A stretch of DNA of 37,367 bases, taken from contig JAJDVB010000121.1 in NCBI GenBank assembly GCA_022826345.1, positions 1 to 37,367 of the forward strand, given 5' to 3'. The number at the start of each line of letters is the position of its first letter. Within the stretch, counting starts at the first letter, position 1. Below the pieces are notes generated by a model. That model saw nothing but the letters and a program-made list of their open reading frames with translations. It did no database searches and had not been told where the DNA came from. The translations under genes and the position numbers were made by a program. Below are positions 11,385-28,278 of the stretch, piece by piece. The DNA comes from Alphaproteobacteria bacterium (lineage in GTDB: Bacteria; Pseudomonadota; Alphaproteobacteria; UBA828).

Positions 11385-11430
11385 AGCCGGGGCCGCTCCG
11401 GCTGCGCGTCAGCGCCCGGCGATTGGGGGC

Positions 11431-11470: not shown

Positions 11471-11522
11471 CCAGCGTGTTCTCAACCTGCGGTGTCCGGC
11501 CTGGGCCGTCCCCGCTGCGGGC

Positions 11523-12902
11523 CTACTTCGGCAGCTTGTCGCCGTAGACGTAGGGCCCGTAGAAGAGCTCGTCGCGGTAGCTGATGCCGGTGTACCAGAC
11601 CTTCTCGTCCGCGACGCCGATGATGTACTCGGTCGCGAAGAGCTGGCCGGTCTTCTCGCCGGTATCGGGCCGGGTGAAGAACTCGTTGGTCGGCCCGCGC
11701 AGGCCGTTGATCTTCAGGTTGCGCCAGGCTTCCACGATCTTGTCGTTGTCGGTGTGGTCGCCCGAGGCCTGCACGCCGTAGAGGAACCAGATGGCGGCGT
11801 CGTAGGCGCCGCGATCGAAGGGGCTCGAGTTCCCGACCTCGGTGTCGCCGTACTTCGCATTGTAGATGGGCACGTATTTCTCGACGCGTGCGAGTGTCGC
11901 CTCGTCCTGCGCCGGATTGTGCTCCTGCCAGCCCCAGACGTAGCCCGACGACATGTTGATACCCTGATCCTTGGCCACGTCGACGAAGATCTGGAGCATC
12001 AGCACGTCGTTGCCCAGCAGAATGATCTCGCCGGTCTCGTAGTTGAGCCCCTGCTTTTTCATCTCGTTCATGATCGCCAGCATGTCGGGGAAGATGTAGG
12101 CGTCCATCAGGACGATGTCGGGGTCCTGCTCCGCGAGTTTGGCAACGTGGGGCGCGAAGTCGGTGGTACCGAAGGGATAGAGCACCGCCCAGTCGTGCTG
12201 GTACTCGTACCGGCCGCCGCCCTTTTCCACCGCTTCCTGCCAGCCGATGGAGCCGTGCACCGTGTAGAGCTCGTTGCGGCCGATGAAGCCGAGCTTCTTG
12301 CGGCCGTCGAAGAGCGCGGGATCGATGCCGTGCTCCGCCAGCCTCTCGGGCGTCTCATGGATGAACTCACCCATGGCGTGCTTCTCGATCACGCCGGTGT
12401 CGGTGATGTCATGGCCGTACTTGCGGCCCACGGTCATCGCCGGGCTCGAGCAGATCGCGCAAATGCTGATGATCCCTTGCGGATCGAGGATCGACGCGGC
12501 CGACAGCAGCGCCGAGTTCATCCGGGGGCCCCAGATCGCGCGGGCTTCGTCCTGCTCGACCAGGCGGATGACGGCGTCGATCGACTTCTTGTCTTCGGAG
12601 ACGTCGTCATAGGCCGTCCACTCGATGGGGATGACCTTGTCGCCGATCTTGAGCCCGCCGCCCTCACAGGGCTGCGGCGGCACCGCCTCGACGATGCAGT
12701 CGCCCTTCATGAACTGCTCGACGGCGAGCCTCACGGCCGCCTCCTCGAAGAGCCCCAAGAACGAGGCCGGGCCCGACAGCGTGAAGACTCCGCCGAACTT
12801 GAAGGTGTCTTCCGCCTTGGCCAGTTGCGGGCCGGCCACGAGCCCCGCACAGAGCGCCGCACCCAGCAGCCCTGCCCGAATTACGCCAAAGGTTGATGCC
12901 AT
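11523..12902 (-). CDS. Branched-chain-type ABC transporter periplasmic substrate-binding protein
   Basis: The 459-residue product starts with a secretion signal of about 30 residues (hydrophobic core GLLGAALCAGLVAG, probable cleavage after AKA). Next comes FGGVFTLSGPASFLGLFEEA, the start of a periplasmic binding fold of the LivJ/LivK/AmiC class. It contains several cysteines (for example ISICAICSSPAM) and is larger than classical LivK (about 370), which suggests a ligand other than a simple branched-chain amino acid. It is the first gene of the leftward liv operon, behind a recognisable promoter. The start was taken at the ATG at 12902, preceded by a GGGAGAGGG-type ribosome-binding site. Confidence 0.92.
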   Translation of the reverse strand: MASTFGVIRAGLLGAALCAGLVAGPQLAKAEDTFKFGGVFTLSGPASFLGLFEEAAVRLAVEQFMKGDCIVEAVPPQPCEGGGLKIGDKVIPIEWTAYDDVSEDKKSIDAVIRLVEQDEARAIWGPRMNSALLSAASILDPQGIISICAICSSPAMTVGRKYGHDITDTGVIEKHAMGEFIHETPERLAEHGIDPALFDGRKKLGFIGRNELYTVHGSIGWQEAVEKGGGRYEYQHDWAVLYPFGTTDFAPHVAKLAEQDPDIVLMDAYIFPDMLAIMNEMKKQGLNYETGEIILLGNDVLMLQIFVDVAKDQGINMSSGYVWGWQEHNPAQDEATLARVEKYVPIYNAKYGDTEVGNSSPFDRGAYDAAIWFLYGVQASGDHTDNDKIVEAWRNLKINGLRGPTNEFFTRPDTGEKTGQLFATEYIIGVADEKVWYTGISYRDELFYGPYVYGDKLPK

Positions 12903-13002: not shown

Positions 13003-13791
13003 TCACGAGCCGAACGCCTCGGTCAGGGGACCGCGCCACCCGTGATTGGTCATGTCCAGCTGGATCGGTGTGACCGAGATCGCGTTCTCGTGGATTGCGT
13101 GGAGATCGGTGCCGGGGTGTTTGCCGCCATCCTTGTAGCTGATCTTTACCCAGAAGTAGGGCACGTGGCGCGTGTCGATCCGCCCGTCGATGGTGAAGGA
13201 GCCCGGCGGTCTCTGCCCCTGGCTCGTGATGCGGACGCCGCTCACCGCTTCCGGGGTCGTATCTGGGAAGTTAACGTTGACCAGCGTGCCCGAGGGCCAG
13301 TCCGGCAGACGCATGAGGGTTTCGATCACGTCCGGCGCGAAGGCCTCCGCCGTGGCCCAGAGCGCCTCGCCACCCATGGTGAACACCTGGCTGAGCGCGA
13401 TCGAGCGGATGCCGAGCAGGGTTCCTTCCATCGCCGCCGCGATGGTGCCGGAATAGGTCATGTCCTCCGCGAGGTTGGCGCCGCGATTGATGCCGGAGAG
13501 CAGGACCGTAGGCGGGCTTTCGGTCATCAGCTCGTGAATCGCCATCAGCGCACAGTCGGTGGGCGTGCCATCCACCGCGTAGCGCTTCTCCCCCATCTGG
13601 CGCAGGCGGATCGGCGTGTGCATCGAAATGGAATGGCCGGCGCCGCTCCGCTCGTGATCCGGGGCGACGACCCAGACGTCGTCCGTCAGGCTCCGGGCGA
13701 TCGCCTCGAGAATCTTGAGCCCCCTGGCGTGGATGCCATCGTCGTTGGTGACCAGGACGCGGTGGTGGGAGAGATCGCTCTCCGCTGTCAT
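13003..13791 (-). CDS. surE: 5'/3'-nucleotidase SurE
   Basis: SurE is a divalent-metal-dependent phosphatase acting on nucleoside monophosphates and related phosphoesters. The 262-residue protein from the ATG at 13791 has the N-terminal metal-binding motif VLVTNDDGIHARGLKIL, then VVAPDHERSGAGHSIS, GTPTDCALMAI, and LLSGINRGANLAEDMTYSGT. An upstream extension in frame to 13983 is unlike the family. Core surE in proteobacteria usually sits near pcm or serS; here it lies between a transporter and a catabolic operon and is divergent from a gene encoding a phosphohistidine protein, so it may be an accessory phosphatase for a phosphorylated intermediate. That role is inference. Confidence 0.92.
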   Translation of the reverse strand: MTAESDLSHHRVLVTNDDGIHARGLKILEAIARSLTDDVWVVAPDHERSGAGHSISMHTPIRLRQMGEKRYAVDGTPTDCALMAIHELMTESPPTVLLSGINRGANLAEDMTYSGTIAAAMEGTLLGIRSIALSQVFTMGGEALWATAEAFAPDVIETLMRLPDWPSGTLVNVNFPDTTPEAVSGVRITSQGQRPPGSFTIDGRIDTRHVPYFWVKISYKDGGKHPGTDLHAIHENAISVTPIQLDMTNHGWRGPLTEAFGS

Positions 13792-13937: not shown

Positions 13938-14690
13938 GTGGCCAAGCTTTACGTGGACACGGACAAGTACGGCGACCAGGCACACTCGCCCACCGTCGAG
14001 GCTTTCCACAGCGCGATCAAGGACCTGGTGAGGCGCCGCCTCGACGAGAGCGGGGTCGACTGGAACAGCTTCGTCTTCGACAAGTCCTACGATCTGATCA
14101 CCGCGGCCGACTTCGAGGAGATCGAGAAGAAGCTGCTCGACGCGGGGCACCGCTACGACTTCTCCGCCGTAATCTCTGTGAACGAGCGGCCCGAGGCCTA
14201 CAAACCCGCCGAAGGCATTCTGGGTGACGACCCAGACTGGACCATGGAGCACCCGGACGCGCCCTTCGGCGAAGCCGATTCAGACGGCAGGGCGCTCTGC
14301 GGCGTCGGCGACAACGTGATGCGCGTCGCCGAAAACACCGTGGGGACCGCTCGTTACGTCCGCTCCAGCAGCCAGGTCATGCACTACCTCGGCGATGGCG
14401 TACCGCCCGAAACCATCGCCATCATCGACGACTCTGGTGGCACGTTGACGGCGCCAATCCTGGAGCAATTCACCGGCATCATCTGCATGGGCGGCACCGT
14501 GCGCTCCCATCTCGGCATCTTGTCGCGGGAATACGGCATTCCCTGCTTCATGAACGCAAAGATCACCGGGATCAAAGAGGGCCAGCGGGTGGAGATGGAA
14601 ACGGCCGCGGCGGCAAAGACGGCGGAGGCCTACCAGAAAGGCGAGGAAATGACCGCCAACATCTGGAAGCTGGCTCAGGAGGCGTCGTGA
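13938..14690 (+). CDS. Stand-alone PEP-utilising-enzyme mobile (phosphohistidine) domain protein
   Basis: This 250-residue protein has in its C-terminal half the swivelling phosphohistidine domain of PEP synthase/dikinase enzymes: ICMGGTVRSHLGILSREYGI with His191 at the phosphorylated position. In known enzymes this domain shuttles phosphate between a nucleotide-binding domain and a substrate domain. The first 125 residues (acidic, with FVFDKSYDLITAADFEEIEKK) match nothing I know. It starts at a GTG behind a strong ribosome-binding site, and its stop overlaps the next gene by one base. A dikinase-like nucleotide-binding protein is encoded four genes on, so the two could form a split phosphotransferase. 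Phenylphosphate synthase, which splits these domains over subunits, is the closest concept I know. Confidence 0.8.
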   Translation: MAKLYVDTDKYGDQAHSPTVEAFHSAIKDLVRRRLDESGVDWNSFVFDKSYDLITAADFEEIEKKLLDAGHRYDFSAVISVNERPEAYKPAEGILGDDPDWTMEHPDAPFGEADSDGRALCGVGDNVMRVAENTVGTARYVRSSSQVMHYLGDGVPPETIAIIDDSGGTLTAPILEQFTGIICMGGTVRSHLGILSREYGIPCFMNAKITGIKEGQRVEMETAAAAKTAEAYQKGEEMTANIWKLAQEAS

Positions 14691-16243
14691 TGGTCGGTGC
14701 GCCTCGCCTCTCCTATGCCCAACTGCTAGAGACCAACAACCTCCTGCAGACCTTCACCGACGAGACCTACTGGCTTTGCGTCACGCGCACCGTGCAGGAA
14801 TCAAAGCTCTTTCCGGTGCCGCCCTACATGCTGCTCTCGTACCTCAACGCGTTCTACCGCTATCCCTCCCTCCTGCGGAAGGTGGAGAGCGTGATGACGG
14901 CGGAAGAAATCGGCGACCGCGCCCGAGAAGGGCGCCCGCCCGGCAAGAGCGCCATGGGTTGGGGGATGCCGGGCTTCTACCTGCTCGGCCGCGAGTGGCT
15001 CATCAACATGGGCCTGCTGAGGCCGCAAGACGCTGCCGAGGATGTCGTCTACCTGATGGACTTCTGGAAGCGCCTGCAGCTTTCCTGGCACCGCAACGAC
15101 GGTCACATCACCAACAAGGAGTTCGGCCACCGCTGCCAAATCTTGCCCGAACGACGGCTTCAGGTGTTCGAGTCAGACGCCTACGGCTGCGAGGCCGGCG
15201 ATCCGCTGCACAGCGCGGCCACGCAGTTCATGGCCTCTGCGGCGCAGTACGGCTTCCTCGTGAGCTGCGAGAGCCGCATCAGCCTGCTCAACACCGGGCC
15301 CTACAAGCTTGCCGACGGCAACGAGATGATTGTCCGCGAATTCATGGACCTCGGCGAAGGCGACTTTCCCTGGCTCGACGACGTGGCGGCTGACATTCCC
15401 TACAACAACCTCACCGTCCCGATGCTGGTGAAGGACTGCCACTTCTATCTGGTCGACGACTGGGGCAGCTTCGAGTCCGAGCCCGAGTTCCGGGCCGAGA
15501 ACATCGTCGGCGTGGGTCTCTACACTTCGGACCCGCTCACCGATGGGCACGTTCCGGTCGGGATGGAGAGCCGCGAGAGCCTGACCGAGACCTTCCGCAC
15601 GCTGGACGGGCTCTTCAAGGAGGCGACGGCGCGGCTCTGGAAGCGCATCGCCGGTTGGAGCCGCGACCAGATGCTCGATGCCGGCGCGCTCACCTATTTC
15701 GGGATCTGCAAGGACCTCGCCCATGTCGCCGGCGTCTATGCCCACGAGGACTGGATGCTGATCGATGAACGGGCCGAGCGCTTCCGCCCCCTGCTCAACG
15801 ACGAGTTCAGCCGCGACTGCCTGGGCGAGCTGGTCGGGCTGCTGACGCTGCCGAGCCACCGCCTCTCGTCCTACAGCATGATGCAGCACGGCAACGGCCC
15901 GACGCGGATGTACACGCCGATCCCCTACGCGGTCCTGGACGGCGAGGACTACGTGCCCACCTGCGGCCCGGTCTATCCCGGCGCCACCACGCTCCCGGCC
16001 AAGGCTGATCGCTACCGTACCAGCCAGGGCGTGCTGTCACTGGAGGAGTACAACGCGCGGGTCCGGACCTTCGCGCCGCAGTCCGACCGGTATCGCTTCC
16101 TTGACGAGACCTGGCTCAAATACAACCACGACACGGCGCGTGCCGACGAGATGTACCAGCACGAGCAGGTGCGGGCGCGGAAGATCCAGGGTCGCGGGGC
16201 CTCGCTCGGCGCTGCCGAGCTGGCGGCGCTCCCCCGCGACTAG
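14690..16243 (+). CDS. Protein of unknown function, 517 residues, in phosphotransfer operon
   Basis: I do not recognise this protein. It is soluble-looking, without signal peptide or clear membrane segments, and rich in Trp, Tyr and His: for example TDETYWLCVTRTVQESKLFP, AMGWGMPGFYLLGREWLINM, WKRLQLSWHRNDGHITNKEF and MMQHGNGPTRMYTPIPYAV. It shows no P-loop, CoA-binding or flavin motif. The start was taken at the ATG at 14690 because AGGAGG lies seven bases before it; a GTG three bases earlier is too close. It overlaps the mobile-domain gene by one base, which suggests a 1:1 complex. A substrate-binding partner for the phosphohistidine domain is a reasonable guess, but only a guess. Confidence 0.85.
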   Translation: MVGAPRLSYAQLLETNNLLQTFTDETYWLCVTRTVQESKLFPVPPYMLLSYLNAFYRYPSLLRKVESVMTAEEIGDRAREGRPPGKSAMGWGMPGFYLLGREWLINMGLLRPQDAAEDVVYLMDFWKRLQLSWHRNDGHITNKEFGHRCQILPERRLQVFESDAYGCEAGDPLHSAATQFMASAAQYGFLVSCESRISLLNTGPYKLADGNEMIVREFMDLGEGDFPWLDDVAADIPYNNLTVPMLVKDCHFYLVDDWGSFESEPEFRAENIVGVGLYTSDPLTDGHVPVGMESRESLTETFRTLDGLFKEATARLWKRIAGWSRDQMLDAGALTYFGICKDLAHVAGVYAHEDWMLIDERAERFRPLLNDEFSRDCLGELVGLLTLPSHRLSSYSMMQHGNGPTRMYTPIPYAVLDGEDYVPTCGPVYPGATTLPAKADRYRTSQGVLSLEEYNARVRTFAPQSDRYRFLDETWLKYNHDTARADEMYQHEQVRARKIQGRGASLGAAELAALPRD

Positions 16244-16284
16244 GGGCGCGCACCTCTACCCACGCATCCGGGCGGCCTGACCTC

Positions 16285-17775
16285 ATGCAGATCGGAGAGT
16301 ACATCCGGCGCGCTGGCGCCATGTACGGCGAGGCGCCGGCGCTGACCGAGGACGCACGCACGCTGAGCTTCCGCGAGTTCGATGCGGCGACGGACCGGCT
16401 CGGCAACGCGCTGCTGGCGCAGGGCTTCGAGCCGGGTGACCGCGTCGGCGTGCTGCTGCCCAACGGAATCGACTGCCTGATCGCCTACTACGCGCTCGCC
16501 AAGTGCGGCCTGGTGCGGGTCTCGCTCAACGTCCGCGAGACTGCGGCGGACCACCGTTACAAGCTCGGCGACAGCGGTGCGCGCGGTCTCATCCACGACG
16601 ATGTCGACGGCGCCGAGGGTTTCGGCGCGCCGATGGTCTACGGCACCCACGCATTGCGCCGTCTCATCGACGACGGGCCAGCCGGTGCCTGCCGCGTGGA
16701 TCGAGATATGCAGGCGCCCTACCGCCTCGGCTTCACCGGCGGGACCACCGGCGCGCCCAAGGCGGTCACACTGACGACGCTCGGCGAGACGGCGGAACTC
16801 TCGGCCTTTCTTATGGACTTGGTGCCCGACCTTGCGCCGGGCGACCGCTTCCTCCACGCCGCCCCCATCGCGCACGCGAGCGGCGCGTTCTTTCTACCGT
16901 CGCTGGTGCGGGGCGTGCTTCAGTTGATCATGCCGCATTTCGACGCCGCCGGCTTCGTCAACATGGCCGCGCATGAGTGCGCGACCCACACCTTTCTGGT
17001 GCCGACCATGCTGGCCATGATCATGGAGGAACCCGCGCTAGAGACCGCGGACCTCCGCTTCAAGCGCATCTGCTACGGCGCATCGCCGATCGCGCCGAGC
17101 CTCTTGGAGCGCGCCATGGCCCGCTTCGGCCCGGTCTTTGCCCAGACCTACGGCCAGGCGGAATCCCCCATGGTGATCACCTTCCTCGGGCCGGAGGATC
17201 ACGACCGCGTGGGCTCGTGCGGGCGGCCCTACACCACCGTCGACGTCGCGATCTTCGACGATGACGACAGGCCGGTGCCCGCCGGCGAGCGGGGCGAGAT
17301 CGTCTGTCGCGGCACCCAGCTCATGGCCCGTTACTGGAACCGCCCCGAAGAGACGGCCAAGGCCTTCCGCAACGGCTGGCTCCATACCGGCGACATCGGC
17401 CGCATGGACGAGGACGGATTCTTCTACATTCTCGACCGCAAGAACGACATGCTCATCAGCGGCGGCTACAACGTCTATCCGCGCGAGATCGAAGACGTGC
17501 TGCTGGCCCATGAGGGCGTCGTCGAGGCCGCGGTCGTGGGCCTGCCGGACGAGAAGTGGGGCGATCGCGTCCACGCCGTGGTCGCCGGGCGGCCCGGCCT
17601 GGACCCAGAGGCCGTGCGCCACTTTTGCCGCGAGAGGCTTGCTGGCTACAAGTGCCCCAAGAGTGTGGAAATTTGGGACGAGCTACCAAAGAGCGGGGCA
17701 GGCAAGCTCCTGCGCCGTGCAGTCCGCGAGCGCGTTATCGCCGCCGCCGCGACGGCTGGGCGGCAAAGCGCCTGA
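16285..17775 (+). CDS. AMP-forming acyl-CoA synthetase / ligase
   Basis: ANL-superfamily ligases activate a carboxylic acid with ATP to an acyl-adenylate and then form the CoA thioester. The 496-residue product has the phosphate-binding loop LGFTGGTTGAPKAVTLTT (residues 148-165), TYGQAESPMVI, the hinge region LHTGDIGRMDEDGFFYILDR, SGGYNVYPREIEDVLL, and the C-terminal catalytic lysine in PKSGAGKLLRR (near residue 474). The loop has Gly-Gly where most relatives have Ser-Gly. The closest families are medium- or short-chain and 3-keto- or aryl-acid ligases; the substrate cannot be read off. It sits among carboxylase and thiolase genes, which suits CoA activation of a carboxylation product. Confidence 0.92.
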   Translation: MQIGEYIRRAGAMYGEAPALTEDARTLSFREFDAATDRLGNALLAQGFEPGDRVGVLLPNGIDCLIAYYALAKCGLVRVSLNVRETAADHRYKLGDSGARGLIHDDVDGAEGFGAPMVYGTHALRRLIDDGPAGACRVDRDMQAPYRLGFTGGTTGAPKAVTLTTLGETAELSAFLMDLVPDLAPGDRFLHAAPIAHASGAFFLPSLVRGVLQLIMPHFDAAGFVNMAAHECATHTFLVPTMLAMIMEEPALETADLRFKRICYGASPIAPSLLERAMARFGPVFAQTYGQAESPMVITFLGPEDHDRVGSCGRPYTTVDVAIFDDDDRPVPAGERGEIVCRGTQLMARYWNRPEETAKAFRNGWLHTGDIGRMDEDGFFYILDRKNDMLISGGYNVYPREIEDVLLAHEGVVEAAVVGLPDEKWGDRVHAVVAGRPGLDPEAVRHFCRERLAGYKCPKSVEIWDELPKSGAGKLLRRAVRERVIAAAATAGRQSA

Positions 17776-17778
17776 GCG

Positions 17779-18381
17779 ATGACCGACGCCTATCTCGTCC
17801 TCCACGGCCTCGCGATCAAGAAGCACGCGGATGCTGGTGCGGTCGCCGCCGCGGTCGGTCTCGACGAGGCCGAGGTGCAGGCGGCACTCGACGAGGCGGT
17901 CGCCAAGGGCCGCGCCGCGCGTGCCGGCAGGGCATATTCGCTGACTCCCGTCGCGCGCGTGGCCCTCGACGGCGCCTATTCCAGGCTTTTCGCCGCGCAA
18001 CGGGTCGACCCGGCGTTCGCCGCCGCCCACGAGCGCTTCGAGGCAATCAATCGAGAGCTGAAGCAGCTCATGACCGCGTGGCAGACCATCGAGATCGATG
18101 GCGAGAGCGTGCTGAACGATCACACCAACAAGGATTACGACGACCGCCTGATCGACCGCCTCGGCGCCCTGCACGAGCGGGCCGAGGCAATCCTCCGGCA
18201 GCTCGCCGCCGGGCTGCCTCGCCTCGCGATCTATGCGGAGAAGCTCGAAGTCGCATTGGAGAAGGCCGAGGACGGCGCCATCGAGTGGATCAGCGGCGCG
18301 AAGATCGAGTCCTATCACACGGTGTGGTTCGAGCTTCACGAAGACCTGCTGCGGATCCTCGGCCGCACGCGGCAGGAATAG
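17779..18381 (+). CDS. Helical protein with winged-helix-like N-terminus, unknown function
   Basis: This 200-residue protein is not one I can name. Residues 1-70 (LHGLAIKKHADAGAVAAAVG, then EVQAALDEAVAKGRAARAGR and YSLTPVARVAL) look like a small winged helix-turn-helix: two helices followed by a basic wing. The remainder is long charged helices (EAINRELKQLMTAWQTIEID; RLIDRLGALHERAEAILRQL) with a conserved-looking core ESVLNDHTNKDYDDRLID. It starts 3 bp after the ligase stop and ends one base before the dikinase-like gene. Its place inside the operon suggests an adaptor or subunit of the dikinase-like protein, or a local regulator; neither can be decided from sequence. Confidence 0.82.
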   Translation: MTDAYLVLHGLAIKKHADAGAVAAAVGLDEAEVQAALDEAVAKGRAARAGRAYSLTPVARVALDGAYSRLFAAQRVDPAFAAAHERFEAINRELKQLMTAWQTIEIDGESVLNDHTNKDYDDRLIDRLGALHERAEAILRQLAAGLPRLAIYAEKLEVALEKAEDGAIEWISGAKIESYHTVWFELHEDLLRILGRTRQE

Positions 18382-18382
18382 C

Positions 18383-20152
18383 ATGGACTCCACCGGCCGC
18401 TGGGTCCTCGCCCTCGACGGCGCCGCGTTGCCTGAGCGCGCGCTTGTCGGGGGCAAGGCATGGGGCATCGCCGTCATGCGCCACGAAGGCCTGCCGGTGC
18501 CGCCCGCCTTCGTGGTGACGACCGAAGCCTGTCGCGCCTATCTCGCCGAAGGCGCGCTGCCCGATGGCCTGCTGGACGAGCTTGGCGCGGGCATTGCGAT
18601 GCTGGAGGCGGAGACCGAGCGCCGCTTCGGCATACCCGAGCGCCCGTTGCTGCTGGCCGTCCGCTCCGGCGCCGCCATCAGCATGCCGGGCATGCTGGAC
18701 ACGGTGCTCAATCTCGGTATCGACGAGGCGGTCGAAGCCGCGCTCGCGGCCGAGAGCGGCGACGCGGCCTTCGCCTGTGACACGCATCGGCGCTTCCACG
18801 AGATGTACGCGCGCATCGTGCTCAAGGCCGGAATCGACGGGCTTGCGCCCGAAGGGTCCGTCGAAGACTGGCGCGCCGCCGTGGCGGAGGCCGGGGCCAC
18901 GGGCAGCGTGCCGAAGGCGCCCACCGATCAGCTGCTGGGCGCCGTCCGCGCGGTCTTCGAGTCCTGGAATGGGCGGCGCGCGCGCCGCTACCGCAAGCAT
19001 CACGGACTGCCGGACGACGCAGGCACCGCCGTCACGATACAGGCCATGGTGTTCGGCAATCTGGGCGAGAACAGCGGCACCGGCGTGCTCTTCAGCCGCA
19101 GCCCGCTCACCGGTTCGCCCGAGCCATACGGCGAATATCTTGCCCGTGCCCAGGGGGAAGACGTGGTCTCCGGCCGGCGGACGCCGCAGGGGCTGGATAC
19201 TCTGGCGTCGTCCCTGCCGGGATCGCACGCTACCCTGATCGACGCCGCGCGCAAGCTCGAAACCCTGAACCGGGATGTCCAGGACATCGAGTTCTCGGTA
19301 CAGGAGGGCGCGCTCTACCTGTTGCAGACCCGTACCGCCGCGCGGGCCCCCGCCGCGGCCGTCCGCATCGCGGTCGATCTGGTGAACGAGGGAACGATTT
19401 CCACCGACGAAGCGCTCGCTCGCATCAGCGCGGAACAGGTGCGCACGCTGCTCATGCCGCGTCTCGCGGAAGGTGGTGCCGATTCCGCCACCCTGCTCGC
19501 CGCGGGAGAAGGCGCGAGCCCCGGCATCGGCATCGGCCGGGTCGTGCTCGACGCCGACGAGGCTGAGGCTCGCGGTGCGGCCGGCGAGGACGTGGTGCTG
19601 GTGCGCCCGACCACCAGTCCGGAGGACGTGCACGGCATGGTCGCCGCCTGCGCCGTGGTGACGGAGACCGGGGGTACGACCTCCCACGCCGCCGTGGTCA
19701 GCCGCTCCCTCGGCGTCCCCTGCGTCGTCGGCTGCGGCGCGGGCGCGGGCGATGCCCTCGCAGGCAGAGAGGTGACGGTGGACGGCAAGGCGGGACAGGT
19801 GTTCGGCGGCGTATTGCCAGTCAGCGCTCCCGCGGAGACGGACGACCCGCACCTGTGCCGGATCGCGGACTGGGCCCGCGCCGCTGCGCCCATCGCGGTC
19901 TATCGTTGGGGTGACTCGGCACCCGACGGCGCGATCGATCTCGACCGCTTGCCGGGCGGTGAGGACCCAGAGCGCTTGCCCGCGCTGCTCGCGGGGGCTC
20001 CCGGTGCTAGGGGCGGTGCACTCGCCAGCGATGCGGGTGTCGCGGCCGCCGTCGCCGCCGGTCTCGATTTCATCGTCGTGCGTCATGCCCTGCCGGCGCT
20101 GCTCGCTGCTTGCGCGGCAGATCGTGCGCTGCGGACGGAGGCGGTCGCGTGA
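18383..20152 (+). CDS. Pyruvate phosphate dikinase-like protein lacking the PEP/pyruvate barrel
   Basis: Pyruvate phosphate dikinase has three parts: ATP-grasp, phosphohistidine swivel and a C-terminal TIM barrel binding PEP/pyruvate. This 589-residue protein has the first two. Residues 1-320 carry LVGGKAWGIAVM, VRSGAAISMPGMLDTVLNLG, ENSGTGVLFSRSPLTG, RAQGEDVVSGRRTP and DIEFSVQEGALYLLQTRT. Residues 378-465 carry TTSPEDVHGMVAAC and TETGGTTSHAAVVSRSLGVP with His435. The barrel is absent; the last 110 residues form a different, alanine-rich tail. Full dikinases are about 870 residues long, so this one could phosphorylate its histidine from ATP but must deliver the phosphate to another protein or small molecule. 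The stop overlaps the biotin-carrier start by 4 bp. Confidence 0.9.
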   Translation: MDSTGRWVLALDGAALPERALVGGKAWGIAVMRHEGLPVPPAFVVTTEACRAYLAEGALPDGLLDELGAGIAMLEAETERRFGIPERPLLLAVRSGAAISMPGMLDTVLNLGIDEAVEAALAAESGDAAFACDTHRRFHEMYARIVLKAGIDGLAPEGSVEDWRAAVAEAGATGSVPKAPTDQLLGAVRAVFESWNGRRARRYRKHHGLPDDAGTAVTIQAMVFGNLGENSGTGVLFSRSPLTGSPEPYGEYLARAQGEDVVSGRRTPQGLDTLASSLPGSHATLIDAARKLETLNRDVQDIEFSVQEGALYLLQTRTAARAPAAAVRIAVDLVNEGTISTDEALARISAEQVRTLLMPRLAEGGADSATLLAAGEGASPGIGIGRVVLDADEAEARGAAGEDVVLVRPTTSPEDVHGMVAACAVVTETGGTTSHAAVVSRSLGVPCVVGCGAGAGDALAGREVTVDGKAGQVFGGVLPVSAPAETDDPHLCRIADWARAAAPIAVYRWGDSAPDGAIDLDRLPGGEDPERLPALLAGAPGARGGALASDAGVAAAVAAGLDFIVVRHALPALLAACAADRALRTEAVA

Positions 20153-20619
20153 CGATCGACCGCAAGGAAATCGAGGCGCTGATCCGCCTCTTCGAGCGGT
20201 CGGACTGGCACGAGCTCCGGCTTGAAACAGACGGCCTGAAGCTGGTGCTCTCGAAGGACGCAGATGCGGCAGCGTTCGGGTCGGAAGCGGAGGTTGCGGC
20301 AGCCTCGCCGACCGAAGACCCGCCGGAGCCGGCGCCCAAGCCGGTGCCGGCCGATGGGCTGGTGCCGATCACCGCGCCCAACCTCGGTACCTTCTACCGC
20401 GCGCCGAAACCGGGGGTCGCGCCCTACGTGGAGGTCGGCCAGCAGGTCGGCGAAGCGACTGAAGTGTGCCTGATCGAGGTCATGAAGCTGTTCACGCCGG
20501 TGCGGGCCGGGATCAGCGGCCGGATCGCCAAGGCCTGCGTCGAGGACGGCGAGATGGTGGAGTTTGGCGCACCGCTCTTTCTGGTCGAGCCGGAGGCCGA
20601 CGCAGCCGAGACAGCGTGA
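20149..20619 (+). CDS. Biotin carboxyl carrier protein (AccB-like)
   Basis: This 156-residue protein carries covalently bound biotin between carboxylase and carboxyltransferase. It has the AccB layout: an N-terminal segment (TIDRKEIEALIRLFERSDWH), a Pro/Ala/Glu-rich linker (residues 55-70), and a biotinyl domain with the motif EVMKLF, Lys113 being the biotin site. The start is a GTG at 20149 that overlaps the dikinase-like stop by 4 bp; the stop overlaps the biotin-carboxylase ATG by 3 bp. Although AccB-like, it lies with a pyruvate-carboxylase-type carboxyltransferase and not with accA/accD-type genes, so fatty-acid synthesis is an unlikely role. Confidence 0.93.
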   Translation: MTIDRKEIEALIRLFERSDWHELRLETDGLKLVLSKDADAAAFGSEAEVAAASPTEDPPEPAPKPVPADGLVPITAPNLGTFYRAPKPGVAPYVEVGQQVGEATEVCLIEVMKLFTPVRAGISGRIAKACVEDGEMVEFGAPLFLVEPEADAAETA

Positions 20620-21977
20620 TGACTCTCTCGCGGGTCTTCGTCGCCAACCGGGGCGAGATCGCCGTGCGCATCGTCCGCGCCTGCCGCTCGCTCGGGCTGG
20701 AGAGCGTCGTCGGTGTCTCCGACGCGGACCGCGAGAGCCTGGCGACGGAGCTCGCGGACCGCGCCGTGGTCTTGGGGCCGGCTCCGGCGCGCGACAGCTA
20801 TCTCGACGCCAACCTGCTGGTCCACGCGTCGAAGGCGACCGGGTGCGACGCGCTGCATCCGGGCTACGGCTTCCTCTCCGAATCGGCAGCACTCGCGGCG
20901 CTCTGCGAGCGGGAGGGGATCACGTTCGTGGGGCCGCGGGCCGTGACCATCGAGCGGCTCGGCGACAAGCTCACCGCCCGCGCTATCGCGGCCGAGGCGG
21001 GCGTCCCTATCGTCCCCGGCTCGGGTGAAATCCGCTCGGCGGCGGACGCCCGCAGGTTCGCCGGGCAGGCCGGCTACCCGGTGCTTATGAAGGCCAGCGC
21101 CGGCGGCGGCGGGCGCGGCATGTTCGTCGCGCGAACGGAGGCGGACATCGACGATGGCTTCGAGCGCGCATCGGCGGAAGCCGAAGCCGCCTTCGGCGAC
21201 GGGGCGCTCTTCGTCGAGCGCTTCGTGGAGGACGCGCGCCACGTCGAGGTGCAGGTCATGGGGAACGGCGCCGGCGCGGTCGTCCACTTCGGCGAGCGCG
21301 ATTGCTCGGTGCAGCGGCGCTTTCAGAAGGTGGTGGAGGAAGCCCCGGCGGCTGCCCTCCCTGCCGAAGCGCGCACGTTGATCCACGATGCCGCCTGCCG
21401 GCTCGCGCGCCATCTCGACTACCGGAGCGCGGGCACGATCGAGTTCCTCTACGATGTGGCGCGCGGCGAGGCCTATTTCATCGAAGCCAATGTCCGCATC
21501 CAGGTCGAGCATCCAGTGACGGAGGAGATCACCGGCATCGACCTGATCGAGGAGCAGTTGCGGATTGCCCAGGGGGCCGGCCTCAGCGTCGCGCAGGAGG
21601 ACATCGCCCTTGCCGGCCACGCCATCGAATGCCGGATCAACGCTGAGGCTCCGGAGCGGGACTTCGCGCCCTCGCCCGGCCTGATCGACGCCTGGTGCGC
21701 GCCGGAAGGCCAGGGCATCCGCATCGACAGCCACTGCCGCGCGGGCGCCTTCGTGCCCCCTTTCTACGACAGCATGATCGCCAAGCTGATCGTGCGCGCC
21801 GACGACCGCGCCCAAGCGGTGGAGCGCATGGCCGGCGCGCTGGACGCGTTTCGGATCGGCGGGATCGACACCAACCTGGCGTTCCAGGCGCGCCTGGTGC
21901 GGCACCCTGACTTCGCGGCCAACAGTCTCAATACGCGCTGGCTGGAGGAAATCTTCATGCCCTCGCTGGTGCACTGA
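20619..21977 (+). CDS. Biotin carboxylase subunit
   Basis: Biotin carboxylase uses ATP and bicarbonate to carboxylate the biotin on the carrier protein. The 452-residue protein, the usual length of a stand-alone subunit, starts MTLSRVFVANRGEIAVRIVR. It shows the ATP-grasp glycine-rich loop KASAGGGGRGM, HVEVQVMGNG, ERDCSVQRRFQKVVEEAPA and the active-site RIQVEHPVTEEITGIDLIE. The catalytic arginine and glutamates expected in these motifs are present. The ATG at 20619 overlaps the carrier stop. The enzyme itself looks canonical; the unusual features of the operon lie in its partners. Confidence 0.95.
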   Translation: MTLSRVFVANRGEIAVRIVRACRSLGLESVVGVSDADRESLATELADRAVVLGPAPARDSYLDANLLVHASKATGCDALHPGYGFLSESAALAALCEREGITFVGPRAVTIERLGDKLTARAIAAEAGVPIVPGSGEIRSAADARRFAGQAGYPVLMKASAGGGGRGMFVARTEADIDDGFERASAEAEAAFGDGALFVERFVEDARHVEVQVMGNGAGAVVHFGERDCSVQRRFQKVVEEAPAAALPAEARTLIHDAACRLARHLDYRSAGTIEFLYDVARGEAYFIEANVRIQVEHPVTEEITGIDLIEEQLRIAQGAGLSVAQEDIALAGHAIECRINAEAPERDFAPSPGLIDAWCAPEGQGIRIDSHCRAGAFVPPFYDSMIAKLIVRADDRAQAVERMAGALDAFRIGGIDTNLAFQARLVRHPDFAANSLNTRWLEEIFMPSLVH

Positions 21978-21988
21978 GCGGAGCGACC

Positions 21989-23449
21989 ATGGCGCACATC
22001 GAGTTCCTCGACGAGACCATGCGGGACGGCCAGCAGAGCCTGTGGGGCATGCGCATGCAGGCCGGCATGGCGCTCCCCATTGCGCCGGTGATCGACCGGG
22101 TCGGCTATCGCGTGGTGGACCTCACCGGATCGAGCCTCTTCGAGGTGCTGATCCGCCACTGCCGCGAGAACCCGTGGGAGGGGCTCGACCTCCTGGTCGA
22201 AGCCATGCCCAACAGCACGATCCGGGGCGGCATGCGCAGCAACGCGAGCGTCACCTTCGGCGTCACACCCGATGCGCTGATGGACGTGTGGATGCGACAG
22301 CTCTGCGTCCACGGCTGCCGCAGCTTCTGGATCTACGACGTGCTCTTCAACATCGACAAGACGCACCGCCTCGCCAAGGTGGCCAAGGAGTTCGGCGCCG
22401 AGGTGGCAGGCGCCATCATGTTCACGCTGAGCCCTGTGCATACCGACGACTACTACGCCGACAAGGCAGACAAGCTCTCAGCCTCGCCGGATATCGACAC
22501 GATCCTGCTCTACGACACGGGCGGCGTGCTGGAGCCGGACCGCATGCGCACGCTGGTTCCCGCCATCATGGCGAAGGCGCGCGGCAAGCCCATCGAGTTC
22601 CACTCGAATAATCTCCTGGGCGCCTCCGGCCGCACCTACGTGGAGGCGATCAAGCTCGGCATCCGCATCCTGCACACTGCCTGCGGGCCGATGGCGAACG
22701 GCCCGTCGGTCCCCTCGGTCGAGGTGATGACGCGGAACGTCGAGCACCTGGGCCACACCCACAACATCGACCGTTCGCTGCTGCCCGAGATCGCCGAGCA
22801 CTTCGAGCGCGTGGCGGGGGCTGCAGGCTTCCCCATCGGCGTGCCCCAGGAATACGACCTCTTCTCGGTGCGGCATCAGGTGCCGGGCGGGATGATGGGC
22901 ACCCTCAAGGCGCAACTCATCCAGCACGAGATGGCGGACCGTCTCGACGACGTGCTGGAGGAGACCGGCCGAGTGCGCCGCGAGCTCGGCTACCCCGGTA
23001 TGGCGACGCCGTTCTCCCAGCTTGTTGGCACGCTTGCCGTGCTCAACATCGTCACCGGCGAGCGCTACTCGGTGATCCCGGACGAGGTGATCCAGTACGC
23101 CGGCGGACACTACGGCGAGCCCGTGGCGCCGATCGATGAGGACGTGCTGGACCGCATCATGGCCGCGCCCCGCGCCAGGGAGGTGCTGGCCGAGCCTCCC
23201 GAGCAGCCCACAGTTGCCGAGCTGCGCAGGCGCCACGACACCGACAATGACGACGAGCTAATTCTGCGCGCTCTGGTGCCGGCGGCGGATCTGGAAAGGA
23301 TGCGGGCCGCCGGCCCGGTGAAGCGGGACTTCCCTATCCTGTCCACGCCGGAGCTGGAGCACGTGCGAAAGCTGATGGCGCTGTCGACCTCGAAGTATGT
23401 CGAGGTGCAGACCGCGACGCTCTCGGTCTCGCTGCGGCGGGCGGGCTGA
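21989..23449 (+). CDS. Pyruvate-carboxylase/oxaloacetate-decarboxylase-type carboxyltransferase with altered active site
   Basis: The 486 residues align from end to end with the carboxyltransferase domain of pyruvate carboxylase, OadA and transcarboxylase 5S: LDETMRDGQQSLWGMRM at the start, FWIYDVLFNID, VRHQVPGGMMGTLKAQL, and ELGYPGMATPFSQLVGTLAVLN late. Two key sites differ. The family has SICIKDMAGLL, whose Lys is carbamylated and binds the metal; here it is TILLYDTGGVL, with Tyr175 in its place. The metal motif HTHDTSG becomes FHSNNLLG (His205, Asn207), losing one metal His. Either the enzyme uses other ligands or it acts on a different acceptor, such as an activated enol. It lies 11 bp after the biotin carboxylase. 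The alignment is by eye. Confidence 0.88.
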   Translation: MAHIEFLDETMRDGQQSLWGMRMQAGMALPIAPVIDRVGYRVVDLTGSSLFEVLIRHCRENPWEGLDLLVEAMPNSTIRGGMRSNASVTFGVTPDALMDVWMRQLCVHGCRSFWIYDVLFNIDKTHRLAKVAKEFGAEVAGAIMFTLSPVHTDDYYADKADKLSASPDIDTILLYDTGGVLEPDRMRTLVPAIMAKARGKPIEFHSNNLLGASGRTYVEAIKLGIRILHTACGPMANGPSVPSVEVMTRNVEHLGHTHNIDRSLLPEIAEHFERVAGAAGFPIGVPQEYDLFSVRHQVPGGMMGTLKAQLIQHEMADRLDDVLEETGRVRRELGYPGMATPFSQLVGTLAVLNIVTGERYSVIPDEVIQYAGGHYGEPVAPIDEDVLDRIMAAPRAREVLAEPPEQPTVAELRRRHDTDNDDELILRALVPAADLERMRAAGPVKRDFPILSTPELEHVRKLMALSTSKYVEVQTATLSVSLRRAG

Positions 23450-23450
23450 C

Positions 23451-24620
23451 GTGCGCCGCGCCTGTATCGTCGGTGTCGTCCGCACCCCCTTCTCCAAGGG
23501 GCGGGAAGGGGGCGTGCTGAGCGCGGTTCACCCCGTCGACCTGCTTGCCCACACACTGAAGGGGCTGGTCGCGCGCACCGGCATCGACCCTAGCGCGGTG
23601 GACGATGTGATCGCGGGCTGTGTCATCCAGGTGGGCGAGCAGGCCGCCAACATCGGCCGCCAGGCGTGGCTTGCGGCGGGCTTTCCGGAGACCGTCCCCG
23701 CCGTCACCATCGACCGAAAGTGCGGCTCGGCGCAGCAGGCGATGGACTTCGCGGCCCAGGGCGTGATGGCGGGCGCCTACGACCTCGTCATCGCCTGCGG
23801 CGTCGAGATGATGAGCCGCGTGCCCATGGGCAGCAACCGGCGCGGCAAGGACCATCTGGGGCCGATGCTGCGCCGGCGCTACGCCGACGGCCTGGTGCAC
23901 CAGGGCATCTCCGCCGAGCTGATCGCCGCCCGCTGGGAACTCGCGCGGGAGGACCTCGACGCCTACGCGCTGCGTTCGCACCGGCGCGCGGCGGCGGCCG
24001 AGGATCGCGGGCTCGTTGCGCAGGACATTCTGCCCTTCGATGGGACATCGACGGACGAGGGCATCCGCCGTAACACCACAGCAGAGAAGTTGGCAGCGCT
24101 GGAGCCCGCGTTCGTGGATGCCGGCACGGCCGAACGTTTTCCCGAAATCAACTGGGTGGTGACGGCGGGGAATTCGAGCCAGGTCTCCGACGGCGCCTCG
24201 GCCATGCTGATCGCATCGGAAGCGGTGGCTGAGCGGCTGGACCTGACGCCGCGCGCCGCCATCACCCACTTCGCGGTCTGCGGCGACGACCCCGTGCTCA
24301 TGTTGACTGGGATCATCCCAGCGACGGAAAAGCTGCTGGCGCGGAGCGGCCGGACCCTCGACGACATCGACTGCTTCGAGGTCAACGAGGCCTTCGCCTC
24401 GGTCGTCCTAGCCTGGGCGGAGACGTTGGGCGCCGACCTCGACCGCGTCAACGTCAATGGCGGGGCCATCGCCCTGGGTCACCCCGTCGGCGCCTCGGGC
24501 GGACGGCTAACCGCCAACCTGATTGGTAGCCTGGAAGAGACCGGCGGCCGGCTCGGTCTTCAGACCATGTGCGAGAGCGGCGGCATGGCCAACGCGACGC
24601 TGATCGAGCGGCTGGGCTGA
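23451..24620 (+). CDS. Thiolase (acetyl-CoA acyltransferase family)
   Basis: Thiolases cleave 3-ketoacyl-CoA with CoA, or run the reverse condensation. The 389-residue protein has the nucleophile Cys91 in TIDRKCGSAQQAMDFAAQG, the active His in GGAIALGHPVGASGGR, and the second Cys in QTMCESGGMANA, where degradative thiolases usually show CIGGG. The start is a GTG at 23451, one base after the carboxyltransferase stop; an in-frame ATG at 23397 lies inside that gene and precedes no homology. In context it would cleave a beta-ketoacyl-CoA made by carboxylation and CoA ligation. The substrate is inferred. Confidence 0.93.
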   Translation: MRRACIVGVVRTPFSKGREGGVLSAVHPVDLLAHTLKGLVARTGIDPSAVDDVIAGCVIQVGEQAANIGRQAWLAAGFPETVPAVTIDRKCGSAQQAMDFAAQGVMAGAYDLVIACGVEMMSRVPMGSNRRGKDHLGPMLRRRYADGLVHQGISAELIAARWELAREDLDAYALRSHRRAAAAEDRGLVAQDILPFDGTSTDEGIRRNTTAEKLAALEPAFVDAGTAERFPEINWVVTAGNSSQVSDGASAMLIASEAVAERLDLTPRAAITHFAVCGDDPVLMLTGIIPATEKLLARSGRTLDDIDCFEVNEAFASVVLAWAETLGADLDRVNVNGGAIALGHPVGASGGRLTANLIGSLEETGGRLGLQTMCESGGMANATLIERLG

Positions 24621-25540: not shown

Positions 25541-26401
25541 ATGAGCGTGAAGACCGTCGGCGTGGTGGGCGCCGGCATGATGGGCTCGGAGATTGCGCTG
25601 GTCATGGCGCTCGCCGGCAAGTCGGTGCTGCTGAGCGATCGCGAGCAGCCCTTGCTGGACGGTGCCCTGACGAAGCTGGAAGCCGTGCTCGACAAGGGCA
25701 TCGTCCGCGGCTTTTACAGCGAGGACGACAAGGTCAGGGCACAGGACAACATGCGCACCACCCTCGACATCGGCGACTTCGCGCCCTGCGACATGGTGAT
25801 CGAGGCCGTTTTCGAGGATGAGCAGGTGAAGGCCGGCGTCTACGAGGCGCTGGACCAGGTCCTTGCCCCGGAGTGCCTGATCGCGAGCAACACGTCGAGC
25901 ATCTCGATCAGCGTGCTCGCCTCGTACCTGGAGGAGGCACGCCGGCCCCGCTTCCTCGGCACCCATTTCTTCTCGCCGGTCTCGCGCATGAAGCTGGTGG
26001 AGGTGATTCCGGGGCTGGAGACTGCCGAAGAGACCGTCGCCGCCGTGACTGCCGTCTGCGAGGAGGCCGGGAAGACGCCGGTGCCGATCAAGGATGTTGT
26101 GGGTTTCGCGGTCAACCGTCTGATCCACATCTTCTGGATCGAGGCGATTCGCCTGGTAGAGGAAGGGGTGGCGACGCCGGAAGATATCGACACTGCCTGC
26201 AAGCTCGGCATAGGGCTCCCGGTTGGGCCGTTCCGCCTGATGGACGCGGTGACCAACAACCTCAGCCTCGACGTGCAGGAGATCCTGCACGAGGCCTACG
26301 GCCCGCGCTTCATGCCGCGCCCCTTGCTGAAGCAGATGGTGAAGGCGGGCTACAATGGGCGGAGCGCGGGCAAAGGCTGGTATCGCTACGACGAAAGCTG
26401 A
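25541..26401 (+). CDS. 3-hydroxyacyl-CoA dehydrogenase
   Basis: This 286-residue NAD-dependent enzyme oxidises 3-hydroxyacyl-CoA to 3-ketoacyl-CoA, or the reverse. It has the dinucleotide motif VGVVGAGMMGSEIALVMALA at the N-terminus, ASNTSSISIS, the catalytic histidine in FLGTHFFSPVSRMKLVEVI, the conserved KDVVGFAVNRL, and LPVGPFRLMDAV near the C-terminus. Length and layout match stand-alone 3-hydroxybutyryl-CoA dehydrogenases. The start follows a GGGAGG ribosome-binding site. It could supply the thiolase encoded upstream, and is followed by two further oxidoreductase genes in the same direction. Confidence 0.93.
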   Translation: MSVKTVGVVGAGMMGSEIALVMALAGKSVLLSDREQPLLDGALTKLEAVLDKGIVRGFYSEDDKVRAQDNMRTTLDIGDFAPCDMVIEAVFEDEQVKAGVYEALDQVLAPECLIASNTSSISISVLASYLEEARRPRFLGTHFFSPVSRMKLVEVIPGLETAEETVAAVTAVCEEAGKTPVPIKDVVGFAVNRLIHIFWIEAIRLVEEGVATPEDIDTACKLGIGLPVGPFRLMDAVTNNLSLDVQEILHEAYGPRFMPRPLLKQMVKAGYNGRSAGKGWYRYDES

Positions 26402-26445
26402 GCCGGAGCAGCGTGCGCGCTCGACCGGATCGAGGAGGGAGAGAC

Positions 26446-27492: not shown

Positions 27493-28278
27493 ATGGTCGG
27501 ACGGGTCGAAGGCAAGATCGCGCTCATCGCGGGCGCCGGCACGGGGGTCGGGCGCGCCTGCATGGTCCTCTTCGGGCGCGAGGGCGCCAAAGTGGTGGGC
27601 TGCTCGCGAACTCAGGCGAACCTGGACGAGACGCTGCGGCTCGCGAAGGAAGCGGGCGGCGACGGCATCGTGGTCGCGCACGACCTCGCCCAGCCCGAAG
27701 GCGCGGAGGCGCTGATCCAGGCCGCGATGGACGTTTACGGGCGCATCGACATCCTCGTGAACTGCGCGAGCGTCGGCTACAGCTGGCTGGAGAAGAGCCC
27801 GGACTCCATGGGCGACGTGGTCAACACCACGCCCGAGAAGTGGCAGGAGGTGATGGGGATCAACCTCGATTCCTATTTCTATCTCTGCCGGGGCGTGATC
27901 CCCATCATGCAGAAGCAGGGCGGGGGCGCGATCGTCAACGTGGCCAGCATCTCGGGCTTCCAGGGCCTCCCCGTCGCGCACACCTACACGGCGGCGAAAG
28001 GGGCTGCGATCAACCTGACGCGCTCGCTCTGTGTGACCTATGCCAAGGACAATATCCGCGCAAACTGCGTGGCGCCGGGCTTCACCGACACGCCGATGGT
28101 GGCGCCAGTGCTCAACCTCTTCGACGATCCGGACATGGCGGACCGCCTTACGCCGATGCTGCGCCCCGGTACGCCGGAGGAAATGGCCTACGGCTGCCTC
28201 TATCTCGGCTCCGACGAAGCGACCTACTGCAACGGCACCGTGCTGACCATCGACGGCGGCACCACGGCCCGGCAATAG
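27493..28278 (+). CDS. Short-chain dehydrogenase/reductase (classical)
   Basis: The 261 residues show the classical SDR pattern: LIAGAGTGVGRA for cofactor binding, NCAS in place of the usual NNAG, VNVASISG, and the catalytic pair Tyr165/Lys169 in TYTAAKGAAINL. The C-terminus TVLTIDGGTTAR is also typical. A segment of about ten extra residues (DSMGDVVNTTP) sits before the NxD helix. It lies 15 bp after the alcohol dehydrogenase and is likely cotranscribed. It is predicted to oxidise a hydroxyl or reduce a ketone; no specific substrate can be named. Confidence 0.9.
   Translation: MVGRVEGKIALIAGAGTGVGRACMVLFGREGAKVVGCSRTQANLDETLRLAKEAGGDGIVVAHDLAQPEGAEALIQAAMDVYGRIDILVNCASVGYSWLEKSPDSMGDVVNTTPEKWQEVMGINLDSYFYLCRGVIPIMQKQGGGAIVNVASISGFQGLPVAHTYTAAKGAAINLTRSLCVTYAKDNIRANCVAPGFTDTPMVAPVLNLFDDPDMADRLTPMLRPGTPEEMAYGCLYLGSDEATYCNGTVLTIDGGTTARQ

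What the first reader, a model, noticed from the sequence alone, without database searches (positions are those of the whole stretch)
13938..24620. Operon joining a split, barrel-less dikinase to a biotin-dependent carboxylase: candidate new ketone-carboxylation system
Nine genes with minimal spacing encode a free phosphohistidine domain, an unknown 517-residue protein, a CoA ligase, a 200-residue protein, an ATP-grasp plus phosphohistidine protein without the PEP/pyruvate barrel, a biotin carrier, a biotin carboxylase, an aberrant carboxyltransferase and a thiolase. Known ketone pathways (acetone, acetophenone) run ketone, ATP-activated enol phosphate, carboxylation, CoA ligation, thiolysis, but use biotin-independent carboxylases. 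Phenylphosphate synthase splits dikinase domains over subunits. Here both themes appear with biotin chemistry. The proposed reaction is phosphorylation of a ketone or enol followed by carboxylation to a beta-keto acid, then ligase and thiolase. The pathway is inference; the gene content is seen.
Basis: partly seen in the sequence, partly recalled or inferred. Interest (0 to 1): 0.88.

Follow-up and report, generated by a model that had tools for sequence, protein, structure and literature searches.

The report
Phosphate-primed biotin ketone carboxylase operon
A rare bacterial operon pairs a new-looking multi-protein phosphate-transfer kinase with a biotin carboxylase, probably to break down ketones by the same phosphorylate-then-carboxylate logic known from a lignin-compound pathway, but with mostly different parts.

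Summary
The nine genes are real, tightly packed and conserved: complete and in order in 7 of 10 loci found with protein B. The set reaches past the finding: a divergent SurE-type phosphatase gene (13003-13791) and an SDR (27493-28278) travel with it. The claim of novelty is only partly right, because phosphorylation followed by biotin-dependent carboxylation of ketones is published (Hpe/Acv pathway, PMC9618137). This operon is a different branch. Its kinase seems built from four proteins: A, a free swivel domain; B, 518 residues, whose confident model has no PDB match; D, winged-helix-like; E, a barrel-less PPDK like autophosphorylating VadK. Its carboxyltransferase forms its own clade, with Tyr (Glu in Rhodococcus) where OAD, PC and Hpe-type enzymes have Lys. 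The phosphatase is SurE and the end enzyme a thiolase. Second A-B-D sets occur in four genomes that each hold one short E, and A-B-D are fused in Gordonia and Rhodococcus opacus. This suggests a relay from ATP through E-His and A-His to a substrate on B, with D as the dock. Substrate, phosphate position and relay are inference. Verdict: new variant of a known kind.

The parts
13003..13791 (-). SurE-family phosphatase/nucleotidase, divergent to the operon; proposed to remove the phosphate after carboxylation (role of HpeD)
   Evidence: PF01975 E 1.6e-58, NCBIfam SurE 333 bits vs cut-off 233; start ATG at 13791 read; SurE within about 6 kb of the operon in 8 of 11 genomes examined
13938..14690 (+). 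A: 250 aa, free phosphohistidine swivel (PEP-utilizers) domain, His191 in GGTVRSHLGILSRE
   Evidence: Pfam PF00391; His kept in all 19 A-type rows aligned
14687..16243 (+). B: 518 aa, no known family; proposed substrate-binding subunit of the kinase
   Evidence: No Pfam/NCBIfam hit; 991 proteins with E <= 0.001 among 7996 scored; AlphaFold2 model pLDDT 88.5, no PDB match at E <= 0.001
16285..17775 (+). C: AMP-forming acyl-CoA ligase
   Evidence: PF00501/PF13193; none of the 25 NCBIfam models shown reaches its cut-off
17779..18381 (+). D: 200 aa, probably winged helix plus helical bundle; proposed docking subunit between E and A-B
   Evidence: Next to E in the operon of the window and relatives; fused to A and B in Rhodococcus opacus B4; fold seen in the model of a fused homologue, not of D itself
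18383..20152 (+). E: short pyruvate-phosphate-dikinase, ATP-grasp plus swivel (His435), no PEP/pyruvate barrel; proposed ATP-dependent phosphoryl donor
   Evidence: PF01326, PF00391, NF004531; closest solved relatives are PPDKs
20149..20619 (+). F: biotin carboxyl carrier protein (EVMKL)
   Evidence: PF00364 above cut-off; TIGR00531 107.6 bits, just under its cut-off of 115.2
20619..21977 (+). G: biotin carboxylase
   Evidence: PF00289, PF02786, PF02785; NF006367 610 vs cut-off 597
21989..23449 (+). H: carboxyltransferase of the PYC_OADA kind with Tyr175 in place of the Lys metal ligand and Asn207 in place of a His ligand
   Evidence: PF02436; alignments and tree
23451..24620 (+). I: thiolase (type II)
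   Evidence: PF00108/PF02803, TIGR01930 above cut-off
27493..28278 (+). SDR oxidoreductase, linked part: in gammaproteobacterial loci it follows the operon or a second A-B-D set; proposed alcohol-to-ketone step
   Evidence: 62-63% identity in L043 and L044, 56-59% in L040, L041, L042, L045
24631..25374 (-). SDR beside the thiolase, convergent; recurrent neighbour in alphaproteobacterial loci
   Evidence: L002-L006, L008, L010, L047, L048, L081

Best explanation
The operon encodes a catabolic route for a ketone, or for a secondary alcohol oxidised to it by the linked SDR. A four-protein dikinase phosphorylates the substrate. E takes phosphate from ATP onto its own His, it passes to the His of the free swivel protein A, and A delivers it to the substrate held by B; D docks E to A-B. 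The biotin enzyme F-G-H then carboxylates the carbon next to the carbonyl of the phosphorylated substrate to a beta-keto acid. SurE removes the phosphate, C makes the CoA ester, and I cleaves it thiolytically to acetyl-CoA and a shortened acyl-CoA. Shown: gene content, conservation, intact His/ATP/biotin motifs, a single short E beside two A-B-D sets. Inferred: every chemical step, the order of phosphate transfer, the substrate class. It works like the Hpe/Acv pathway but is not a member of it.
For: Gene set and order conserved: all of A-I in 7 of 10 loci (four of the seven, L002-L005, are close relatives of the window), also L043, L044, L047, L048 and, cut at its end, L039; and, with another thiolase plus OB-fold protein and a tyrosine phosphatase, in Rhodococcus oxybenzonivorans and R. 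pyridinivorans plasmids. Strong B in 5 of 385 alpha- and 4 of 369 gammaproteobacterial genomes; all 9 also have the window-type carboxyltransferase. Phosphatase: SurE near the operon in 8 of 11 genomes, 7 of those 8 having another SurE elsewhere. Second sets A-B-D-CT-SDR or A-B-D-SDR without E, F, G nearby in four genomes, one set cut at a contig end; each of the four holds one short E at 700 bits or more, so E looks shared and A, B, D substrate-side. A-B-D are one 793-aa chain in R. opacus B4. VadK, a short PPDK, autophosphorylates its His with ATP, and its operon partner improves its solubility (PMC13400623, abstract and passages). Hpe precedent: HpeHI phosphorylates, HpeCBA carboxylates only the phosphorylated ketone, HpeD dephosphorylates (PMC9618137 sections). 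The carboxyltransferase is 39% identical to one from an Hpe-type cluster (L057) and shares its PGGMxGT.
Against: No enzyme of this set has been assayed. G406 has C-F-G-H with Tyr175 but no A, B or E found in its genome, so either the carboxylase can work without this kinase or the assembly is incomplete. G348 lacks A and B hits too, though it has a short E and its carboxyltransferase contig is only 3352 bases. L007 has neither CoA ligase nor thiolase in the operon. No SurE lies near the operon in G002, G004 and G372, and SurE is a common housekeeping family (10 of 14 control genomes). B shows no sequence or fold link to HpeH or RPH, so its role rests on context only. Two metal ligands of the carboxyltransferase are changed, so its chemistry may differ from Hpe. 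Distant A'-B'-D'-E' sets lack a carboxyltransferase hit (L016, L049, L050, L052, L054), so there the kinase must serve some other reaction.
Confidence: 0.55

Rival explanations
1. Enol-phosphate version: the kinase phosphorylates the ketone's own enol oxygen, and F-G-H carboxylates the enol phosphate with loss of phosphate, so no metal-assisted enolisation is needed.
For: The carboxyltransferase has lost the Lys (Y175) and one His (N207) that hold the metal in pyruvate carboxylase-type enzymes, in all 120 listed homologues, whereas Hpe-type rows, whose substrate must be enolised, keep both. Metal-ligand roles are recalled knowledge.
Against: A phosphatase gene travels with the operon: SurE in 8 of 11 genomes, tyrosine phosphatase in two Rhodococcus plasmids, which is needless if phosphate leaves on carboxylation. 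The Rhodococcus relatives keep the His and have Glu for Lys. No enol phosphate was tested.
Confidence: 0.2
2. The kinase and the carboxylase serve different steps or substrates of one degradation pathway, for example phosphorylation of a tertiary or secondary alcohol for elimination, and a separate carboxylation of another intermediate.
For: A'-B'-D'-E' sets exist without a carboxyltransferase hit (L016, L049, L050, L052, L054; L049 has a biotin-carboxylase-like gene about 6 kb away), and L014 has A', B', D' alone. ATP-dependent phosphorylation then elimination of steroid C25 alcohols is known, with an unrelated kinase (PMC8449060, abstract and passages). G406 has the carboxylase without the kinase, in a cluster with acyl-CoA dehydrogenases, ChsH2-like OB fold and thiolases.
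Against: Second sets duplicate A-B-D together with a second carboxyltransferase and SDR (L040, L042), and in 9 of 11 genomes with the strong carboxyltransferase B is present too, which ties kinase to carboxylase.
Confidence: 0.15
3. E, with D, is a regulatory histidine kinase that controls the pathway enzymes (as proposed for VadK) and A-B are its protein targets, not a small-molecule kinase.
For: VadK is described as a regulatory kinase interacting with methylcitrate-cycle enzymes (PMC13400623 abstract); the D part of a fused homologue has a winged-helix, MarR-like fold.
Against: A is itself a swivel domain with a conserved His, B is strongly conserved, and phosphatases of three unrelated families sit beside such sets: SurE, tyrosine phosphatase, HAD (L016), as expected if a metabolite is phosphorylated.
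Confidence: 0.08
4. The genes make an ordinary product such as oxaloacetate from pyruvate; the dikinase-like gene is a degenerate PPDK.
For: The carboxyltransferase is in the PYC_OADA family and many of its homologues are named oxaloacetate decarboxylase alpha subunit or pyruvate carboxylase by their sources.
Against: 27% identity to a true OadA, separate clade, Lys to Tyr and His to Asn fixed; it passes none of the curated OadA/PC cut-offs; ligase and thiolase would be pointless.
Confidence: 0.02

Closest known systems
Hpe/Acv pathway (HpeHICBADEF of Rhodococcus rhodochrous GD02; AcvABCDEF of Sphingobium SYK-6; XccBCA of Aromatoleum)
   Same: Multi-component ATP dikinase with swivel His, three-subunit biotin carboxylase, a phosphatase gene, a CoA ligase and an end enzyme that releases acetyl-CoA, in one operon (PMC9618137)
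   Different: No sequence link of B to HpeH or close link of E to HpeI, judged by the Hpe-type cluster L057 (GD02's own proteins were not at hand); an extra free swivel protein and protein D; PPDK-type ATP-grasp with its own swivel; carboxyltransferase in another clade with Y175/N207; SurE in place of HAD; thiolase in place of the CouO-like hydrolase
VadK (Rv1127c) with partner Rv1126c, short PPDK of mycobacteria
   Same: ATP-grasp plus phosphohistidine domain without the PEP/pyruvate barrel, a partner gene next to it; autophosphorylates its His (PMC13400623, abstract and passages)
   Different: VadK is described as a regulatory kinase; here the pair sits in a catabolic-looking operon with A and B. 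That Rv1126c is a relative of D is my supposition, not tested
Phenylphosphate synthase PpsAB and 4-cresol kinase CreHI
   Same: Dikinase domains spread over subunits, small-molecule phosphorylation (PMC12167813, sections 8 and 10)
   Different: They are HpeHI relatives of two main components; [quoted passage not shown]
Acetone and acetophenone carboxylases (Acx, Apc)
   Same: ATP-driven ketone carboxylation (later steps recalled)
   Different: Biotin-free and of another protein family (recalled; PMC5543143 and PMC5214803 seen only in search listings with the start of the abstract)
Rifampin phosphotransferase (RPH)
   Different: Single chain; its substrate domain was not among the matches of B

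Membership tests
Hpe/Acv pathway | Three-subunit biotin carboxylase with PYC_OADA-type carboxyltransferase | tested here: met
   F, G, H; H 39% identical to the carboxyltransferase of the Hpe-type cluster L057
Hpe/Acv pathway | Carboxyltransferase belongs to the HpeB-type clade | tested here: not met
   Window in a separate 12-row clade (100/98); Hpe-type rows L057 and L055 with three Tm-1-type rows in another (100/100); K in those rows, Y/E in the window clade. GD02 HpeB itself was not in the tree
Hpe/Acv pathway | Two-component kinase: HpeH (substrate plus swivel) and HpeI (ATP-grasp only) | tested here: not met
   A and B are separate proteins and E carries its own swivel; B profile vs HpeH-like protein of L057 probability 0.4%, a weak test as the profile is of 8 close rows; E vs HpeI-like protein 25% over 178 columns; E is PPDK-like
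Hpe/Acv pathway | HAD-type phosphatase HpeD in the cluster | tested here: not met
   No HAD family among the 33 window frames scanned with Pfam; SurE instead
Hpe/Acv pathway | CouO-like beta-keto hydrolase HpeF | tested here: not met
   Thiolase I instead; SYK-6 also lacks HpeF (PMC9618137)
Hpe/Acv pathway | Phosphorylation of a ketone substrate is required for carboxylation | not testable with these tools
   needs enzyme assays
VadK-type short PPDK | PPDK_N and swivel, no PEP-utilizers_C barrel | tested here: met
   E: PF01326, PF00391, no PF02896; NF004531 709.4 vs cut-off 456
VadK-type short PPDK | Adjacent partner gene | tested here: inconclusive
   D is next to E here and in relatives; homology to Rv1126c not tested
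Pyruvate carboxylase / oxaloacetate decarboxylase | Metal site with Lys and two His (roles recalled) | tested here: not met
   Y175 and N207 in window and in all 120 listed homologues; K and H in the two OadA rows and K in the aligned OAD and PC chains 2nx9 and 5ks8
Acetone/acetophenone carboxylase (Acx/Apc) | Hydantoinase-type subunits (recalled) | tested here: not met
   No such Pfam family among the 33 window frames scanned
RPH / phenylphosphate synthase substrate domain | B shares the fold of the substrate-binding domain | tested here: inconclusive
   Foldseek and VIA-align list no such match for B; absence there is not proof
Canonical PPDK/PEP synthase | PEP/pyruvate TIM barrel | tested here: not met
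   absent from E

The most novel reading that the evidence does not exclude
A new class of small-molecule kinase that works as a soluble phosphorelay, comparable in logic to the sugar phosphotransferase system: one shared ATP-charged barrel-less PPDK (E) hands phosphate through a docking protein (D) to exchangeable swivel/substrate modules (A-B) for different substrates. In this operon it primes ketones for a biotin carboxylase with a remodelled, possibly metal-free, active site. The same relay would explain orphan short PPDKs in general.
Probability: 0.35. Interest if true: 0.8.

Novelty: new variant of a known kind. Interest (0 to 1): 0.6.

Why it matters
If right, phosphorylate-then-carboxylate ketone breakdown has been assembled more than once from different kinases (HpeHI, this A-B-D-E set, perhaps the Tm-1-like proteins seen here) and different phosphatases (HAD, SurE, tyrosine phosphatase). 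It gives orphan short PPDKs a testable small-molecule role, puts a function beside a 518-residue family without annotation (991 proteins detected), and offers a biotin carboxyltransferase whose metal site has been rebuilt.
Full report
Observation. The nine genes stand as described: A 13938-14690, B 14687-16243, C 16285-17775, D 17779-18381, E 18383-20152, F 20149-20619, G 20619-21977, H 21989-23449, I 23451-24620, each open to a single stop, with three short overlaps (A/B, E/F, F/G) and gaps of 1-41 bases. E has the PPDK ATP-grasp and swivel domains but no PEP/pyruvate barrel, and keeps the VRSGA, LLQTR and TETGGTTSH motifs (role of the motifs recalled). F has the biotin motif EVMKL.

Conservation. 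A scan of genome contigs with B gave 10 loci. All of A-I in one order are in L002-L006, L008 and L010 (7 of 10; L002-L005 are close relatives of the window). L009 runs A to H and ends with the contig, L007 has A-B-D-E-F-G-H without C and I, and L001 is a 3-kb fragment with part of A, B and part of C. In 385 alphaproteobacterial and 369 gammaproteobacterial genomes a strong B (over 600 bits) occurs in 5 and 4; G001, G002 and G004 among these were known. All 9 also have the window-type carboxyltransferase over 860 bits. That carboxyltransferase occurs in 6 and 5 genomes; the two without B are G348, whose carboxyltransferase contig is 3352 bases long, and G406. Two Rhodococcus plasmids carry A-B-C-D-E-F-G-H, then an OB-fold protein, another thiolase, a tyrosine-type phosphatase and an SRPBCC protein. 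Novosphingobium resinovorum pSA1 has B-F-G-H with a CoA ligase (37%) and a thiolase in one group, and SurE, A, D and E in another. So the set is real, rare and partly plasmid-borne.

Parts beyond the finding. The divergent gene upstream is SurE. A SurE lies within about 6 kb of the operon in 8 of 11 genomes examined: G001, G003, G005, G006, G086, G480, G602, G703; 7 of these 8 have another SurE elsewhere (G003 has none). In G004, G372 and G002 none is near. The SDR at 27493-28278 follows the thiolase in L043 and L044.

The carboxylase. In a tree of 23 carboxyltransferases the window lies in a 12-row clade (100/98) apart from a 5-row clade (100/100) that holds the two rows of Hpe-type clusters (L055, L057) and three with a Tm-1-like gene, and from kinase-less and OadA rows. 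Hpe-type here means gene content; GD02's own proteins were not compared. Of 33 locus rows column 175 is Tyr in 14, Glu in 3 (all Rhodococcus) and Lys in 16; column 207 is Asn in the 14 Tyr rows and His in the other 19; all 120 listed homologues (best 120 of 3254) have Tyr and Asn. Nine Hpe-type and Tm-1-type rows have Thr where the other 24 keep an Arg (column 83). PGGMxGT is shared with the L057 row. Roles of these residues are recalled from pyruvate carboxylase.

Comparison. Hpe: HpeHI phosphorylates 4-hydroxyacetophenone and acetovanillone, HpeCBA carboxylates only the phosphorylated forms, HpeD dephosphorylates, and HpeE/F are proposed to end the route (PMC9618137 sections 3, 4 part 1, 8, 11; kinase detail PMC12167813 sections 8 and 10). 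Hpe-type clusters are present in the same genome samples (L083, L084, L086) and on plasmids (L055, L057). The window works like this route but fails its kinase, clade and phosphatase tests, so it is filed as a new variant of a known kind.

Limits. Substrate, position of the phosphate and relay order are not shown. G406 (C-F-G-H, no A, B or E found; neighbours acyl-CoA dehydrogenases, hydratase, ChsH2-like OB fold, thiolase) weighs against a strict need for this kinase, unless its assembly is incomplete. The thiolase's best NCBIfam models are PRK07801, TIGR01930 and PRK06504, with a steroid thiolase model among the next, so a bulky substrate is possible, but this is weak.

Noticed in passing
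6388-12902 (-): Two acetoacetate-decarboxylase-family genes beside a branched-chain-type ABC transporter, conserved in L002-L005; ADC-family genes also lie about 5 kb from the operon in L006, L008 and L010.
   Followed up: partly
25541-27474: 3-hydroxyacyl-CoA dehydrogenase and a Zn alcohol dehydrogenase between the operon and the linked SDR; possible lower-pathway enzymes.
   Followed up: no
28402-32638: Sugar-type ABC transporter (SBP_bac_1, two permeases, MalK-like ATPase) downstream.
   Followed up: no
689-4304 (-): PTS enzyme I-like and RapZ-like genes at the other end of the window.
   Followed up: no
36265-37329: Phage-type integrase at the window end.
   Followed up: no
L056 7926-14610: Cnuibacter plasmid: carboxyltransferase, BCCP, BC, BioY, 3-oxoacid CoA-transferase and thiolase without a kinase; looks like a candidate biotin-dependent acetone (ketone) carboxylase route.
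   Followed up: no
L017 6972-12357, L018 6883-12365, L060, L087: Carboxylase clusters with a Tm-1-like ATP-binding protein and HAD-type gene where Hpe has its kinase and phosphatase; may be the single-component kinase type.
   Followed up: no
L014 11890-14779: Methylibium petroleiphilum PM1 plasmid: B-, A- and D-like genes a few kb from methylmalonyl-CoA-mutase-family and AMP-ligase genes; a possible kinase for a tertiary alcohol or its product.
   Followed up: no
L011 7902-11103, L012 7308-10879: Upstream of the operon, Rhodococcus plasmids carry two further A/B-like pairs (26-33% to B), one of them fused.
   Followed up: no
G480:C50 and G703:C17 second A genes: The matches to the second A copies contain one in-frame TAG each; not examined whether it lies inside the gene.
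   Followed up: no
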